IMG/VR virus record: IMGVR_UViG_3300028802_000063
Coordinates: 1-21,514 of that record
Length of the DNA: 21,514 bases
DNA from: a virus
Strand: one strand, 5' to 3'
In this document: positions 3,652 through 18,010 of the stretch, in pieces
Layout of the letters: every line of letters starts with the position of its first letter
Position numbering within the stretch: position 1 is the stretch's first letter
Made by a program: the position numbers and the translations under genes
Notes under the pieces: model-generated
Told to the model about the DNA's origin: nothing
Seen by the model: the letters and a program-made list of their open reading frames with translations, nothing else
Databases searched by the model: none

Positions 3652-3885
3652 ATGCCTGATGCACCGGACTGCCGGCGCTGCAATCGCGCTGACACGCGTT
3701 ACTACCGGCATACGTTCGACGGTGGTTTTCACGTCGGTTTATGGTGCTTGAGCTGCCACGCACACGCGCAGACCGGGCGCGCTTGGTACGCGAAAGGCGA
3801 TTTCACCGCCGAGGAACTCAAGGCGCTGCCCGATCTGGCTCGGGTCGAGGGCACGGCAGATCCACGACAGACCCGCCTCTTTTAG
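3652..3885 (+). CDS. Small zinc-ribbon protein
   Basis: The 77-residue protein has two knuckles, C7-R-R-C10 and C32-L-S-C35, 21 residues apart, as in zinc ribbons. The rest includes G-R-A-W-Y-A-K-G-D-F and a short acidic helix. Function is unknown; small zinc-ribbon proteins near phage replication and modification genes commonly bind nucleic acid or act as adaptors. I chose the ATG at 3652 because GGAGAGG lies about ten bases upstream and because an earlier TTG at 3559 would translate the octamer array. Its stop lies two bases before the start of the RuvC-methyltransferase gene, so both are probably translated from one message. Confidence 0.62.
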   Translation: MPDAPDCRRCNRADTRYYRHTFDGGFHVGLWCLSCHAHAQTGRAWYAKGDFTAEELKALPDLARVEGTADPRQTRLF

Positions 3886-3887
3886 TT

Positions 3888-5327
3888 ATGCGAATGAACG
3901 ATAAGCAACCAAGTCGAAGCAAGGCCCCTAGGCGCCGTCGTGCGGCTAGCGCCGTCGTCACACGTGGGTCAGGGCGGAAGCGCCGTCGCGAGCCGACACG
4001 CGCACAGCTCGTGCAGCGGCGGGGCTATGCGGCGCGACCGTGGCGCTGCGCCGTGCTCGCCGTGGACACCGCGGGGCGGTCTGGCTGGTCATTCCGCGTG
4101 GCAGGCGTTCAGTCTGCTTTCGGGGAAGTCGAAACCAAGGACGGTGAGTCCGTTGCCCACATTGTGCGGTGGGCGGAGCAAGAATCTCACAGCCTCGATT
4201 TGGTGCTCGTGCTCGAGGCCCCCTACGGCGGCGGACGCGAAATGCTGCTCGCGCTCGGGGCCGCGCGCGAGCGCTGGCTTGCCGCGTGGCGGCAGGTTGG
4301 CTTATCAGAAAAGCGCGTAGTGCCGATCATGCCGTCGCGCTGGCGGCGCTTCGTGCTTGGGCCTGCGTATGTGCGCATGCAGCGCGACGACATACGCGCT
4401 GCAGAGCAGGAGCTCGCCGCGCGGATCGTCGGTGAAAAGTGCGCGGCGGATGAGTCGGCGGCGATTTTGATCGGGCTGTGGGCTGAACGCGCGCCGGAAG
4501 TCGGCGAGGCTTTAGGCACAAATGCGCGGCAAATCGGGGCCGGCGACGACTCGAGCGGGGCCGCCCGTGCTGCCAATGACGTCGCTTGCACGGATGCCAG
4601 TGTGCAAGCCGACACGCTTGCAAGCGTGCCAGTGAGCACGGGTGCAAGCGTGCTCATGAGCAGCCCCGTACGGCAGCTCGAGGCCGTATATGCCAAGGCC
4701 GCCGCGGACAAGCGCGCGGAGTGGTCTCAGTGGTATACGCCGCCGTGGCTCGCTGCGGCCCTGTGGGAGTGGGCGTCGCGCGGCGATCGGCCCGTGCGCA
4801 GCGTGATCGAGCCGTCGTCGGGGGAAGGTGCGCTGATCTTGCCGATACTCGCGGATCCGCGCGGCTGCATGGCGATCACGTGCGTTGATATCGACCAAGA
4901 CAACGTGCGCAAGCTCGCCAAAGTGTGCCGTGATCGGCAGGTGCCGGCGGGGCTCGTGATCACTGCGCATCACGGCGATTTTATGTGTGGCAAGTCGACC
5001 AATGCCGGGGCGCTATTCGACCTGTGCTTGATGAATCCACCCTATGAAAACGGGCAAGCGGAAGACTTCATTTTACACGCGCTCACGATGGCACGGCGCG
5101 TGTGCGGGATATTCAAAGCGTCGATCCTGCACGGTCAGGGTAGGTACGACACGCTATGGCAGCACGCGCAGACGACGCGCGAAGTACGGCTGAAAAAGCG
5201 GCCATCTTTTGGCAAGTCGAGCCGGGGTACGACGTCGCCGAAAAACGATTACGTCGCACTCGAGATCGTGCTGCGCACGGCTGACGCACCTAGCGAGCGC
5301 ATGGTCGAGGTTGAGTCGTGGGGTTAG
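3888..5327 (+). CDS. RuvC-like nuclease fused to N6-adenine DNA methyltransferase
   Basis: The 479-residue protein has two enzymes in one chain. After a very basic ~50-residue head, residues 54-200 look like a RuvC/RNase H-fold Holliday-junction nuclease: V-L-A-V-D60-T-A-G-R-S-G-W, then V-L-V-L-E110-A-P-Y-G-G-G, then C-A-A-D188-E-S-A-A-I-L-I-G, giving a plausible D-E-D metal site. Residues ~265-479 form an adenine methyltransferase: W-Y-T-P-P near 282-286, SAM-binding E308-P-S-S-G-E-G and catalytic N383-P-P-Y. Residues 228-260 are the linker and are encoded by an octamer repeat array. In the phage it could resolve recombination or packaging intermediates and methylate DNA against host restriction; both roles are inferred. 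ATG at 3888 or 3894 is possible; an upstream extension would only overlap the zinc-ribbon gene. Confidence 0.78.
   Translation: MRMNDKQPSRSKAPRRRRAASAVVTRGSGRKRRREPTRAQLVQRRGYAARPWRCAVLAVDTAGRSGWSFRVAGVQSAFGEVETKDGESVAHIVRWAEQESHSLDLVLVLEAPYGGGREMLLALGAARERWLAAWRQVGLSEKRVVPIMPSRWRRFVLGPAYVRMQRDDIRAAEQELAARIVGEKCAADESAAILIGLWAERAPEVGEALGTNARQIGAGDDSSGAARAANDVACTDASVQADTLASVPVSTGASVLMSSPVRQLEAVYAKAAADKRAEWSQWYTPPWLAAALWEWASRGDRPVRSVIEPSSGEGALILPILADPRGCMAITCVDIDQDNVRKLAKVCRDRQVPAGLVITAHHGDFMCGKSTNAGALFDLCLMNPPYENGQAEDFILHALTMARRVCGIFKASILHGQGRYDTLWQHAQTTREVRLKKRPSFGKSSRGTTSPKNDYVALEIVLRTADAPSERMVEVESWG
4571..4666. repeat. Octamer-period repeat array B, inside the coding region
   Basis: Twelve consecutive 8-base words occur in strict phase, among them TGCCAATG, TGCACGGA, TGCCAGTG (twice), TGCAAGCG (twice), AGCACGGG and TGCTCATG. 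The same words make up the intergenic arrays. Here they lie wholly inside the open frame, exactly between the RuvC-like and methyltransferase domains. Twelve octamers make 96 bases, a multiple of three, so the frame is kept. The encoded linker is rich in A, S, T and V. Confidence 0.8.
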
Positions 5328-8432: not shown

Positions 8433-8632
8433 TCGACCGCGCGGAGTGCATCGCGGAAACCGGGATCGCGATGCTGGTGCGCTTCGCTCCGCCTAACAGG
8501 GCGATCCGCACGGTGTGGATACCTAAGGCGGTTGTGCACGACGATTCAGAGGTGTTTGATTCGCGGGAAAACGCGCGCGGCAAGCTGGTGTTGCAGGCTT
8601 GGTGGGCTGATCAAGAGGGGATCACGACGTGA
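8387..8632 (+). CDS. Small conserved-looking phage protein of unknown function
   Basis: The 81-residue protein has the pattern V-W-I-P-K-A-V-V-H-D-D-S-E-V-F then G-K-L-V-L-Q-A-W-W-A-D-Q-E-G-I. Short phage proteins with I-P-K-S-x-x-x-D-D-S-E-V-W and a W-W-A-x-x-x-G-L ending are common and have no known role. I chose ATG at 8387, overlapping the upstream gene by 46 bases; an in-frame ATG at 8336 would overlap by 97. It is the last gene before the repeat modules, whose first pentamer starts seven bases after its stop. Confidence 0.6.
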   Translation: MGRRDYVDSDSGTAVIDRAECIAETGIAMLVRFAPPNRAIRTVWIPKAVVHDDSEVFDSRENARGKLVLQAWWADQEGITT

Positions 8633-8638
8633 GATTTT

Positions 8639-8748
8639 GGCAGGGCCGCGCGTGGCGAGGCCGGGCCAGGCGGGGCAAGGCATGGTGGGGCGGGGCAAGG
8701 CATGGGTCTGTTGGTCGATCGGACACTGAAACTAGTCGACCAGTTTTC
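8639..8748. repeat. Pentamer/hairpin module 1
   Basis: Fourteen 5-base words run in phase from 8639 to 8708, mostly GGCNN, ending GGCAA, GGCAT, GGGTC. They lead into a hairpin with arms TGGTCGAT (8712-8719) and GTCGACCA (8735-8742). The 15-base loop ends in GACACTGAAACTA and a short T-tract follows. Modules 2 and 3 repeat the design. No convincing gene lies in 8633-9084. Confidence 0.8.
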
Positions 8749-8751
8749 CAC

Positions 8752-8873
8752 GGCTTGGCGAGGCGAGGCTGGGCATGGCCTCGGCCGGGCGGGGCGAGGC
8801 GCGGCGGGGCGAGGCAACGCATGGGTCCGTTAGTCGACATGACACTGAAACTAGTCGACTGTTTGTTTTTTTT
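8752..8873. repeat. Pentamer/hairpin module 2
   Basis: Pentamers of the GGCNN type run from 8752 to 8827 with one extra base at 8782, ending GGCAA, CGCAT, GGGTC. The hairpin has arms AGTCGAC (8832-8838) and GTCGACT (8854-8860) around the conserved loop. Relative to module 1 the pair G-C has become A-T, a compensatory change. A long T-tract follows. Confidence 0.8.
8831..8873 (+). terminator. Terminator-like hairpin with T-tract (module 2)
   Basis: A 7-base stem (AGTCGAC with GTCGACT, plus one possible T-G wobble) is followed directly by GTTTGTTTTTTTT. The layout is that of a rightward rho-independent terminator, though the 15-base loop is long and the stem short and only moderately GC-rich. 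It would separate the modification/small-terminase genes from the late genes. Weak as a terminator call on its own. Confidence 0.35.
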
Positions 8874-8998
8874 GGCCCGGTCAGGCTAGGCGCGGCAAGC
8901 CATGTCCAGGCATGGCGGGGCGCGGCAGGACGCGGCCGGGCTAGGCAACACATGGGTCCGTTAGTCGACATGACACTGAAACTAGTCGACTGTTTTTC
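8874..8998. repeat. Pentamer/hairpin module 3
   Basis: Seventeen 5-base words in unbroken phase run from 8874 to 8958, mostly GGCNN, ending GGCAA, CACAT, GGGTC. The hairpin arms are AGTCGAC (8963-8969) and GTCGACT (8985-8991), with the same loop as module 2 and then TGTTTTT. From CATGGGTC at 8951 to the second arm it is identical to module 2. Confidence 0.8.
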
Positions 8999-9084: not shown

Positions 9085-9666
9085 ATGGCCGATCTAGAGA
9101 TATTCAAGGCGAGGTTACACGGCAAGGCACCGATCATGCTGCATAACGGGCAGCTAGCGAATCCGCGATCCGAGGCGGCGAAGGCGTTGTCTGCGGTGTC
9201 GAAAGGTCGAGCGAAAGATCACGACAAGCTAGCCCGCGCTGAGTTCATGGGTTCGCTATACTTGGACGCTAACGTCGAGCCGTGCATACCGGTCGACAAT
9301 GTCTTGTCGACGATCTGCGAAGGTGCAGCGGCCTTCAAGAAACGAAAGCAAGCGCGAGCCGGGATCTACGACCTGCCCGAACACCCGACGTTTCCGCTGC
9401 TCTACAAGGGGCCGCGCGATCCGGTCAAGCTCTACGAGTCGGACGCGCACGTAGACACGCGCGGCGTGCGCGTGCAGCAGTCTCGCATCATGCGAACGCG
9501 GCCGATCTTCCGAGGTTGGCAGCTCGTGATGATCGTCGAATACGATCCCGAGCTGATGCCACTCGACGACCTGCGGCTTGCTCTCGCACGCGCAGGCAAG
9601 GCGATCGGCCTCGGTGACTATAGGCCGCGCTATGGGCGTTTTTCGTATGAGGAGCTGCGATCATGA
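9085..9666 (+). CDS. Phage protein of unknown function, weakly RAMP/Cas7-like
   Basis: The 193-residue protein begins with F-K-A-R-L-H-G-K-A-P-I-M-L-H-N, a strand-like segment, has I-P-V-D-N-V-L-S-T-I-C-E-G-A-A and ends with L-A-R-A-G-K-A-I-G-L-G-D-Y-R-P-R-Y-G-R-F. Phage proteins with an opening S/A-P-x-x-M-H-N and a closing A-G-x-x-I-G-x-G-D-x-R-P-x-x-G-R-F recur in tailed phages without a named function. The Gly-rich ending recalls the loop of RAMP-fold (Cas7/Cas5) RNA-binding proteins, but that is only a visual hint. AAAGGA upstream of the ATG supports the start; it lies in the loop of a small GTAAC/GTTAC hairpin. It is the first gene after the repeat modules. Confidence 0.6.
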   Translation: MADLEIFKARLHGKAPIMLHNGQLANPRSEAAKALSAVSKGRAKDHDKLARAEFMGSLYLDANVEPCIPVDNVLSTICEGAAAFKKRKQARAGIYDLPEHPTFPLLYKGPRDPVKLYESDAHVDTRGVRVQQSRIMRTRPIFRGWQLVMIVEYDPELMPLDDLRLALARAGKAIGLGDYRPRYGRFSYEELRS

Positions 9667-10136
9667 TCACTTCATACAAGGCCGAACTGTGGCCGCTCCA
9701 ATATGACGCGCTGCGCAAGGGCGACGTGATCCCGGCTGAGGCGATCGAGCGCTACGCGTCAGCGGCGTTTGCAAAGCGCGTTGTGCGTGGCACTGATGAC
9801 TTTGGGCTGGCTTGCATGCAGCTGGTAGGGCTGATCCTCGATCATCGTGCCGAACTGCGCGCGCGCCGTGACGGGCACGATATCCGCATTTTGACCGATG
9901 TCGAGTATGCCGCTGACACGCAGCGCCGCTTGCGCGCAGGCGTCAAGAAAGTGTTGCGGACGGCAACGCTTCCGTCACCCGAGCTGCGGGCGTTGTCGCA
10001 GTCGCAGCGCGACGAATGGGATCGCTCGCAAGCACGATCGATGCGTCACGCAGAATCGGCAGCCGCTCGCGAGCAAGACTTGCGACGCGAGCAGCGGATC
10101 CTAACAGCTGGTGCAAAGCGGGGCCTCACGCCGTGA
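9663..10136 (+). CDS. Hypothetical helical protein
   Basis: A 157-residue protein that I do not recognise. The first half is mixed (W-P-L-Q-Y-D-A-L-R-K-G-D-V-I-P, F-G-L-A-C-M-Q-L-V-G-L-I-L). The second half is a long charged helix rich in R, Q, E and A, likely coiled coil. It starts in an ATGA overlap with the upstream gene and its stop overlaps the GTG of the large terminase, so it is embedded in the packaging operon; a packaging accessory role is possible but unproven. Confidence 0.6.
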   Translation: MITSYKAELWPLQYDALRKGDVIPAEAIERYASAAFAKRVVRGTDDFGLACMQLVGLILDHRAELRARRDGHDIRILTDVEYAADTQRRLRAGVKKVLRTATLPSPELRALSQSQRDEWDRSQARSMRHAESAAAREQDLRREQRILTAGAKRGLTP

Positions 10137-11991: not shown

Positions 11992-12047
11992 CACCAGCGT
12001 GCACACGTGCAAGCGTGCCAGTGTGCAAACGGAACCATGAGCAAAGG
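11992..12047. repeat. Octamer-period repeat array C
   Basis: Seven words in strict 8-base phase begin on the base after a stop codon: among them TGCACACG, TGCAAGCG, TGCCAGTG, TGCAAACG. The array runs up to the ribosome site of the next gene; its last word AGCAAAGG contains the AAAGG of that site. Confidence 0.75.
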
Positions 12048-12351: not shown

Positions 12352-12407
12352 CGCTCATGATACCGTGTGCCCATGGGCAAGCTTGCAAGTGAGGCCATGA
12401 GCACATG
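12352..12407. repeat. Octamer-period repeat array D
   Basis: Seven words in strict 8-base phase: CGCTCATG, ATACCGTG, TGCCCATG, GGCAAGCT, TGCAAGTG, AGGCCATG and AGCACATG. Weaker words may extend back to about 12320. The ATG ending the last word is the start codon of the portal gene. Confidence 0.75.
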
Positions 12408-13838: not shown

Positions 13839-13932
13839 CGCGCTTGCACGGCGGCACCCGTGCTCATGAGCACGGGCACACATGTGCACATGAGCACGGA
13901 TGCACGGCGGCACATTGACTGCCGTGCATGTG
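13837..13932. repeat. Octamer-period repeat array E with 20-base palindrome
   Basis: Twelve words in strict 8-base phase, starting inside the portal stop codon: TGCACGGC twice, GGCACCCG, TGCTCATG, AGCACGGG, CACACATG, TGCACATG, AGCACGGA and others. It contains the perfect 20-base palindrome CCCGTGCTCATGAGCACGGG at 13857-13876 and a 16-base run of alternating pyrimidine-purine at 13877-13892. Confidence 0.8.
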
Positions 13933-16056: not shown

Positions 16057-17900
16057 TCAGCGCGCTACGCACGCAAGCCGCAGCTCGAGGTGCGCGGTAC
16101 GCGCGCGACGTCGCGCGACGCAAGTCACCGAGGCCGCGCTACCCGCACAAGGAAGTGCTGATCTATCACCGCCGGATCCGCTATCTCGTGCATCAAGCGC
16201 AGTACGTGATCGAGCGTGACCTGCTGCCGCAGCTGCCGACACTGCTCGATGAGCAGTCGCAGGTGTCAGCCGTCGTCATCCGTCGCGACTCGGCGGACGA
16301 TATCGACCGCGCGATCGCAAAGACGGCAGCGGCGACCGTGCAGACAGTGCCCGATCGCGAGATCGAAGCGGCGGCGACGCAAACGGCCTTGCGTGTGTCG
16401 GAGTGGCACGCCGACGAGTTCGGCAAGCAGATCGAAAAAGTCGCGCGCATCAACCTTCACGACAATACGACCGGTCTAGCGGGTGCGATCGACTTGTTCG
16501 TCTCGGATAACGTGGCGCTGATCAAGTCGATCAACGCGCAGCAGCTCGAGGCCGTGAAAGGCGTGATCCTGCGCGGCGCGCGCGCGGGCAAGTCGCACCT
16601 CGAGGTGCGGGACGAAATCGTCGCGCAGTTCGGCAAATCGAACAAGCGCGCGGCGCTAATCACCACGGATCAGATCGGCAAATTGAACGGGCAGCTAACG
16701 CAGCTGCGACAAACCAATATCGGGATCCGTCGCTACCGATGGTCGACGGCACAGGATGAGCGTGTGAGGCCTGCGGAAGGTGCCAACAAAGAAAGGCTCG
16801 GGCACCGCAAGCTGAACGGCACGATTCAGGAGTGGACGAAACCTCCGCTGACCGATGAACGCACCGGCGAGCGTGCGCATCCGGGCTATCCGATCCGCTG
16901 CCGGTGCGTGGCGATCCCGATCGTCGACGATCTGCTAGTCGAGGCCGGCTTGCTCGCGCCCGAAGACGTCGAGCTGCAGCAGCCCACACCGGGGCGTGTC
17001 GTCACCGTGCCGGGCGCACCGCCGCCCGCGAACACGCAACGCCCGCCGCCGGCACCGCTGCCGCCCACGCCGCCGCCGCCGGCACCGCCGCCGGTCACAC
17101 GGCCCCGATCGCCTACAGCCCCGCCCATATCCGGGGTGCTGCCCACGCCGAGCGTGTCAGATCGCGAGCTCGAGGCCGCAGCGTTCGCCCGGCTGCAGCA
17201 GCAGGCGTCCGAAGCGCTGCAGCGCAAAGCGGCCGCCGAAGTCACCCGCAAGCGGGCCGAGAAAGCGCTAGCCGCCGCGCTGGCCAGCTCGGAACGTGCC
17301 GCCGCAGCCACGGCGCAAGCGGAGCTCGAGGCCGCGCAAGTCGCAGAAACGGCAGCTGCCGGGGCGTACGCACGAGCCGTGCAGGAGGCCGCGGCCCCGA
17401 TCGTGCGGGTGCCGCCTGCGGTGGGGGCTGCGCCGCCCGCGCCCATGCGTAAACCCAAGGGCACGCCAGCACCAGGCCGCAAGCGCCCGCCCGTGCCGCT
17501 CGAGCCGCCCCGCAAGCCGGCGATGGCCAAGCCGCGCAAGGGTGTTGGCCCGCGCATACCGGCTGCCGACCGCGCGCTACTCGCGCCGATCGAGGCCGGC
17601 TTGGCGGACGCGCAGCTGTCGTATTTGCGTGAAGGCATGCGCGACTTGACCGCCATCAGCAGCGCATACGCCGGGGCTACGGCGGCGGAAGTCGATCTGA
17701 TCGCCACTGGGCAAAGTCGGACGAAAACGGGGCAGGCCTTCGAGCCGATCCGTATATCAGCCGAGCCTGGTTACCTAGAGCTCACAGACGGTCGGCACCG
17801 CATGGCAGCGGCTCGGGCAGCCGGGGCGACGCGGATCCTTGCTCGAATCAAGACGCCGGGCGGGGCCGAATACCTGCGGGTGATTCCGATTCCGCGCTAG
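16044..17900 (+). CDS. MuF/SPP1 gp7-like head morphogenesis protein with C-terminal ParB-like domain
   Basis: The 618-residue protein starts with a helical minor-head region and, at about 200-300, the MuF core: R-Y-R-W-S-T-A-Q-D-E-R-V-R, then H-P-G-Y-P-I-R-C286-R-C288-V-A. Such proteins attach to the portal and enter the virion. From ~315 come a Pro-rich linker and an Ala/Glu-rich helix (about 375-455). The last ~100 residues end in Y-L-E-L-T-D582-G-R-H-R-M-A-A-A-R-A-A-G-A-T-R-I, the ParB/Srx motif also seen in nuclease-like and Srx-fold domains. MuF proteins of temperate phages are known to carry variable C-terminal toxin domains; a ParB-like tail is therefore a candidate effector. GTG start at 16044; alternatives were not better. 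No catalytic activity is shown. Confidence 0.82.
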   Translation: MDALISALRTQAAARGARYARDVARRKSPRPRYPHKEVLIYHRRIRYLVHQAQYVIERDLLPQLPTLLDEQSQVSAVVIRRDSADDIDRAIAKTAAATVQTVPDREIEAAATQTALRVSEWHADEFGKQIEKVARINLHDNTTGLAGAIDLFVSDNVALIKSINAQQLEAVKGVILRGARAGKSHLEVRDEIVAQFGKSNKRAALITTDQIGKLNGQLTQLRQTNIGIRRYRWSTAQDERVRPAEGANKERLGHRKLNGTIQEWTKPPLTDERTGERAHPGYPIRCRCVAIPIVDDLLVEAGLLAPEDVELQQPTPGRVVTVPGAPPPANTQRPPPAPLPPTPPPPAPPPVTRPRSPTAPPISGVLPTPSVSDRELEAAAFARLQQQASEALQRKAAAEVTRKRAEKALAAALASSERAAAATAQAELEAAQVAETAAAGAYARAVQEAAAPIVRVPPAVGAAPPAPMRKPKGTPAPGRKRPPVPLEPPRKPAMAKPRKGVGPRIPAADRALLAPIEAGLADAQLSYLREGMRDLTAISSAYAGATAAEVDLIATGQSRTKTGQAFEPIRISAEPGYLELTDGRHRMAAARAAGATRILARIKTPGGAEYLRVIPIPR

Positions 17901-18010
17901 CACGTTTGCACATTTGCTCATGAGCACATGAGCAAGCGTGCACGCCAGTACGCCGATACGTGAGCACCCGTGCAAGCGTATCAATGGGCAAGCGTGCCAA
18001 TGTGCTCTTG
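17899..18010. repeat. Octamer-period repeat array F
   Basis: Fourteen words in strict 8-base phase, starting inside the MuF stop codon: TGCTCATG, AGCACATG, AGCAAGCG, TGCAAGCG, GGCAAGCG, TGCCAATG, TGCTCTTG and others. The first part contains a hairpin with arms GCTCATG and CATGAGC around AGCA. It is the longest array of the family and fills most of the gap before the protease/scaffold gene; 18011-18042 shows no clear ribosome site. Confidence 0.8.

What the first reader, a model, noticed from the sequence alone, without database searches (positions are those of the whole stretch)
8639..8998. Three pentamer-array plus hairpin modules with compensatory base changes
Each module has 14 to 17 mostly GGCNN words in 5-base phase followed by a ~48-base conserved block. 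In the block the stem pair is G-C in module 1 (TGGTCGA/TCGACCA) and A-T in modules 2 and 3 (AGTCGAC/GTCGACT), and an inner pair is T-G versus C-G. The 15-base loop ends identically in all three, GACACTGAAACTA, and a T-tract follows. Covariation with a conserved loop points to a selected hairpin, as RNA or single-stranded DNA. No convincing gene covers it. It could be a terminator/antiterminator cluster, a small RNA or a protein-binding site.
Basis: partly seen in the sequence, partly recalled or inferred. Interest (0 to 1): 0.82.

Follow-up and report, generated by a model that had tools for sequence, protein, structure and literature searches.

The report
Three phage VIPR guide-RNA genes
The three repeats are genes for gapped-code guide RNAs (vrRNAs) of a VIPR system, a CRISPR-related weapon that phages use against rival phages; the system was first described in 2026, so this is a new member of a known kind whose target is still unknown.

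Summary
At 8639-8998 there are three modules, each a 5-nt-phased GGCNN array followed by a structured tail. They are three vrRNA (guide RNA) genes of a VIPR system (preprint PMC13142463, 2026).

Evidence: the next gene (9085-9666) is a Vipr protein. It matches the solved SUSP1 Vipr (PDB 36pp) at E=2.4e-19, and its confident model folds like Cas7/Csm3. The gene after it (9663-10136) falls in the family of the SUSP1 accessory gene (vap). Across public viral contigs, 98 of 132 loci with GGCNN arrays carry a vipr gene; 368 of 378 arrays there lie on its strand, at a median of 284 nt.

Its stem differs among eight tail types yet always pairs: native arms 100%, swapped arms 38%. It is the second helix of an H-type pseudoknot plan shared with SUSP1; the first helix is short and weakly supported. 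A terminator reading is not supported.

The expected function is to guide Vipr to DNA through the NN dinucleotides, read with a one-base skip. That is inferred from SUSP1 and was not shown here. No target was found. Novelty: new member of a known kind.

The parts
8639..8701 (+). Array of vrRNA 1. NN series AG CG GT GA CG CA GG AA AT GG GG AA (the AT after the last GGC is counted with the tail)
   Evidence: sequence; in-phase count
8702..8746 (+). Tail of vrRNA 1 with T-run. S1 8706-8710 with 8720-8724; S2 8711-8719 with 8735-8743
8752..8820 (+). Array of vrRNA 2, with a six-base unit GGCCTC at 8777-8782. NN series TT GA GA TG AT CT(C) CG GG GA GC GG GA AA
   Evidence: sequence
8821..8873 (+). 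Tail of vrRNA 2 with T-run. S1 8825-8827 with 8841-8843; S2 8831-8838 with 8854-8861
8874..8951 (+). Array of vrRNA 3, with GCC, GTC and GAC departures. NN series CC CA TA GC AA AT CA AT GG GC AG GC CG TA AA
   Evidence: sequence
8952..8998 (+). Tail of vrRNA 3 with T-run. S1 8956-8958 with 8972-8974; S2 8962-8969 with 8985-8992
9085..9666 (+). vipr gene, 193 aa, Cas7-like RAMP protein (phrog_4652)
   Evidence: PDB 36pp E=2.4e-19; model pLDDT 95.9 and Csm3/Cas7 folds
9663..10136 (+). vap accessory gene, 157 aa, family of SUSP1 vap; fold unresolved, perhaps winged helix
   Evidence: iterated profile search

Best explanation
The three modules are three vrRNA genes of a VIPR system of the SUSP1-like (vap1, 'type II') branch, carried by a tailed phage next to its terminase genes. 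Shown here: the array-plus-tail anatomy, the compensated tail hairpin, a Vipr protein and an accessory protein immediately downstream on the same strand, and tight linkage of such arrays to vipr across many phages. Inferred from the published experiments on SUSP1 (PMC13142463): each module is transcribed as an RNA of about 105-125 nt; Vipr subunits coat the GGY words; the NN pairs stay free and together recognise double-stranded DNA with one skipped target base per repeat; bound Vipr blocks transcription of a gene in a competing phage, prophage or satellite. The tail would be the handle that ends the guide. How the three adjacent guides are cut apart or separately transcribed here is not known.
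For: Window Vipr against PDB: 36pp 'SUSP1 Vipr protein', E=2.4e-19 by single sequence, 1.5e-39 by profile. AlphaFold model pLDDT 95.9; best folds are Csm3/Cas7 subunits, VIA Z 11.3, Foldseek E 6e-5. SUSP1 found with profile A1 at E=8.7e-42, with a neighbour gene, GGT arrays and the same tail plan. SUSP1 vap recovered at E=2e-10 in an iterated search seeded with the window and L004 genes. Vipr tree: loci with this vap fall in one 40-row clade with SUSP1 (support 86/83), the window with L004 at 100/99. Linkage: 98 of 132 array loci hold vipr; 368 arrays on its strand, 10 against; median distance 284 nt; 0 of 19 contigs fetched for other reasons. Tail: S2 native 100% paired, swapped 38%. The three arrays share GGY but differ in their NN series, as programmable guides should.
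Against: No expression data. No natural target found: the central eight NN pairs of guides 1 and 3 hit viral contigs only at chance level with no extension; guide 2 was not scanned in a collection. Guide 3 has several degenerate GGY words and guide 2 a six-base unit, so one or both could be decayed. Single tails do not fold better than shuffles (z -1.28, -0.01, -0.13), so the structure rests on comparison. Helix S1 is only 3 bp in two modules and varies little.
Confidence: 0.94

Rival explanations
1. The modules are a cluster of transcription terminators or antiterminators: the hairpin and T-run stop or modulate transcription before vipr.
For: Each hairpin is followed by a run of T.
Against: Loops of about 15 nt; no terminator on the + strand by scan; T-run not conserved in L004 modules; does not explain the phased array or its linkage to vipr.
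Confidence: 0.03
2. The arrays are cis leaders that Vipr binds to regulate its own mRNA (a TRAP-like phased-triplet site), not guides acting on other DNA.
For: Arrays lie close to vipr, on its strand; all three window modules are upstream of it.
Against: Most arrays in relatives lie downstream of the vipr domain (272 downstream, 96 upstream); the NN positions vary freely between modules; SUSP1 vrRNAs act in trans on DNA (PMC13142463).
Confidence: 0.04
3. The window's guides are decayed remnants of a VIPR locus and no longer work.
For: Degenerate GGY words in guide 3, slip in guide 2; no target found.
Against: vipr and vap are open and conserved; tail pairing is kept; L004, whose arrays also have departures, keeps seven modules.
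Confidence: 0.1

Closest known systems
VIPR system of Escherichia phage SUSP1 (type II; PMC13142463, PDB 36pp)
   Same: Single small RAMP protein, accessory gene next to it, guides of GGY/NN repeats on one strand, tail beginning (A/G)TGGGT with the same H-type pseudoknot plan, two tail sequences per locus.
   Different: The window uses mostly GGC rather than GGT; all three guides lie upstream of vipr (SUSP1: one upstream, three downstream); tail stems are different sequences; the Viprs are only distantly related (E=2.4e-19).
VIPR of uncultivated phage IMGVR_UViG_3300028281_000002 (locus L004)
   Same: Vipr about 70% identical, vap 47% identical, seven modules with the same tail plan, and the loop GGACACTGAAAC in one of them.
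   Different: Four modules upstream and three downstream of vipr-vap; two tail classes (GGTCCG against GGTGACC/GGCGACC stems).
Class 1 CRISPR effector backbone (Cas7/Csm3)
   Same: Fold of the backbone protein (Z 11.3), and the idea of a protein filament on a guide RNA.
   Different: No CRISPR repeat-spacer array and no Cas domain found by family search; 5-nt phase with gapped reading instead of a contiguous spacer.

Membership tests
VIPR | Vipr protein: single-domain RAMP homologue | tested here: met
   36pp E=2.4e-19; model pLDDT 95.9, Csm3/Cas7 folds Z 11.3
VIPR | vrRNAs with 9-16 repeats alternating GGY and variable NN | tested here: met
   about 13-16 words per module, GGY in phase, NN series differ between modules
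VIPR | Structured 3' tail after the repeats | tested here: met
   hairpin S2 pairs in all eight tail types, swapped arms 38%; same plan in SUSP1
VIPR | Pseudoknot in the tail (SUSP1 clade) | tested here: inconclusive
   S1 can form in all types but is 3 bp in W2, W3 and some L004 tails, with few changes
VIPR | vap accessory gene beside vipr | tested here: met
   9663-10136 joins the SUSP1 vap family in an iterated profile search, SUSP1 at 2e-10
VIPR | vrRNA expressed and bound by Vipr | not testable with these tools
   needs RNA sequencing and pull-down
VIPR | NN code with one-base skip recognises DNA | tested here: inconclusive
   no targets for guides 1 and 3; slight excess for skip 1 among 326 guides: 17 matches at E<1 against 7, 10 and 8 for skips 0, 2 and 3
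VIPR type II | Vipr in the SUSP1 branch with vap1 | tested here: met
   tree clade of 40 rows, support 86/83, holds window, SUSP1 and the vap1 loci; the paper's own type definitions are in supplements that could not be read
CRISPR-Cas | Cas proteins and repeat-spacer array | tested here: not met
   no Cas family among the ten window proteins scanned in Pfam nor for any of 75 Vipr relatives, none in PADLOC for vipr or vap; array phase is 5 nt
Intrinsic terminator | short-loop GC stem followed by a T-run | tested here: not met
   none on the + strand; loop about 15 nt; T-run not conserved in L004
Known Rfam RNA | match at gathering score | tested here: not met
   0 matches in the window

The most novel reading that the evidence does not exclude
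This branch uses two tail classes per locus with one Vipr (window: module 1 against modules 2-3; L004: GGTCCG against GGTGACC stems; SUSP1: upstream against downstream tails). The two classes could be a functional division, for instance different loading, timing, or protection from recombination between guides, which the main text of the VIPR preprint does not describe.
Probability: 0.2. Interest if true: 0.55.

Novelty: new member of a known kind. Interest (0 to 1): 0.5.

Why it matters
VIPR is a very recently described RNA-guided DNA recognition system, proposed as a relative older than CRISPR. This window gives an independent, sequence-first rediscovery of it, a GC-rich member with decoded guides, and a linkage of GGCNN arrays to vipr in a large set of uncultivated phages. 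The covarying tails offer direct tests of how a guide is recognised by its protein.

Tried and rejected
TRAP-like phased-triplet leader: considered first, dropped when the linked protein proved to be a Cas7-like Vipr.

Rfam: no hit. Exact tail sequence in viral contigs: none. Window DNA against phage records: none. Array plus tail pattern in bacterial genomes: none.

Close relatives of the window vap: none confirmed in viral contigs or phage records by single sequence. Close relatives of the window Vipr: only L004; the host was therefore not identified (searches show only distant structural-gene relatives).

Targets: guides 1 and 3 in viral contigs, chance hits only; no self target in the window or L004; among held loci the one-base-skip excess is only suggestive.

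Fold of vap: model of moderate confidence (pLDDT 86.8), no PDB match better than E 0.9; weak sequence hints of an OmpR-type winged helix (E 0.064). Thermodynamic folding of single tails: no better than shuffles. Covariance model: not built, since the tool cannot hold a pseudoknot.

Full report
Observation. The three modules lie at 8639-8998 as described. Each is a run of GGY words, almost all GGC, in 5-nt phase, then ATGGGTC, a hairpin and a run of T. In-phase counts far exceed chance for modules 1 and 3 and for the window as a whole, and are strand specific. Modules 2 and 3 have nearly identical tails, so the covariation visible inside the window is slight.

Surroundings. The window is a phage fragment (a 21,514-base virus record) with primase-helicase, methyltransferase, small and large terminase, portal, protease and major head protein. 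The modules fill the gap between an ORF ending at 8632 and the gene at 9085. That gene belongs to phrog_4652, of unknown function in PHROGs; a relative, 71% identical, occurs in one other contig, L004. L004 has seven modules of the same plan around its two homologous genes.

From DNA pattern to system. A scan for array plus tail end gave unrelated phages with arrays. Most of these loci encode a homologue of the 9085 protein: 98 of 132 in the final count. 368 arrays are on its strand and 10 are not, with a median distance of 284 nt. Of 34 array loci without it in the DNA held, two have it elsewhere on the contig; many contigs are fragments. None of 19 contigs fetched for other reasons has it; as a control this is small.

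Identity. A profile of 75 homologues matched PDB 36pp, 'SUSP1 Vipr protein', at 1.5e-39, and the window protein alone at 2.4e-19. The AlphaFold model (pLDDT 95.9) resembles Csm3/Cas7. The preprint PMC13142463 describes VIPR: Vipr, an accessory vap gene and vrRNAs of 9-16 YNNGG repeats with a structured tail, recognising DNA through the NN pairs with a one-base skip and silencing genes of competing phages. Every anatomical feature testable here is met, except that the pseudoknot is only weakly tested. In SUSP1 itself the profile finds vipr, and the record shows the neighbour gene and GGT arrays.

Branch. An iterated profile search from the window and L004 accessory genes recovers the SUSP1 vap at 2e-10; 35 of 37 family members sit in loci that also have vipr. 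In a tree of 101 Viprs, the vap1-bearing loci, SUSP1 and the window lie in one 40-row clade (support 86/83); the window pairs with L004 (100/99). This places it in the SUSP1-like, type II branch; the supplementary type definitions could not be read.

Tail. Laying out the tails as an H-type pseudoknot gives the same order in the window, L004, SUSP1 and wV8: S1a, S2a, S1b, loop, S2b. S2 differs among the eight tail types and always pairs; arms swapped between types pair at 38% over the five inner positions. S1 is 3-5 bp in the window and L004 and largely the same GTC/GAC core; against SUSP1 it changes partly with compensation. The layout was made by hand from the structure, which favours it. Single-sequence folding energies are unremarkable.

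Targets. Guides decoded as NN series are given under parts. The central eight pairs of guides 1 and 3, with one-base skips, gave 7 and 9 stretches in viral contigs; none extends convincingly into the remaining pairs. No self target stands out. Across 326 guides and 2.7 million held bases (both strands counted), skip 1 has 17 matches at E<1, against 7, 10 and 8 for skips 0, 2 and 3: consistent with the published rule, but not proof.

Verdict. Three vrRNA genes of a VIPR system, a new member of a known kind. Function in this phage is inferred from SUSP1. The terminator reading is not supported.

Noticed in passing
L147:2165-3870 (Mycobacterium phage LittleE), L145:2893-3030 (Gordonia phage MakoManhole), L031, L085: Directly after the VIPR arrays stand tRNA-like minihelices (acceptor stem plus T-arm with TTCGANY loop): 10 clear cases plus one doubtful in L022 among 465 array tails, 3 in 2325 control windows. 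They could be RNase P/RNase Z punctuation of guide precursors. The VIPR preprint's main text mentions hammerhead-interspersed arrays but no tRNA. Gordonia phage Trine (L148) looks similar by eye; ARAGORN calls 'tRNA-???' there and in L094.
   Followed up: partly
window 13839-13925, 17893-17995, 11994-12045, 12365-12405, 4587-4662: A second phased repeat class with 8-nt period (NGCANNNN words), mostly between genes or just before gene starts, and once inside ORF 3741-5327. No other locus held here has an 8-nt run at the same threshold. Function unknown.
   Followed up: partly
L006, L012, L013, L020 (array tails on the - strand): Arrays in these phages end in a mini hairpin whose stem differs but pairs (GTCCC/GGGAC, GCACC/GGTGC, GCGCC/GGCGC, GACCC/GGGTC), apparently a second covarying tail type.
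   Followed up: no
L146:2094-3573: Pseudomonas aeruginosa LESB58 prophage 2 (vB_Pae_LESphi2) carries vipr, vap and three GGY arrays; the two genes are annotated only as hypothetical proteins.
   Followed up: no
L149 (Escherichia phage wV8) and many more enterobacterial phage records: Felixounavirus-type phages carry an unannotated Vipr homologue (130 phage records in all match); wV8 has two GGY arrays with SUSP1-like tails.
   Followed up: no
L024:6310-7008, L062, L067, L056: Very long or staggered GGC arrays (up to about 140 words; runs shifted as GGCAGGC), which may be the staggered arrays named in the preprint.
   Followed up: no
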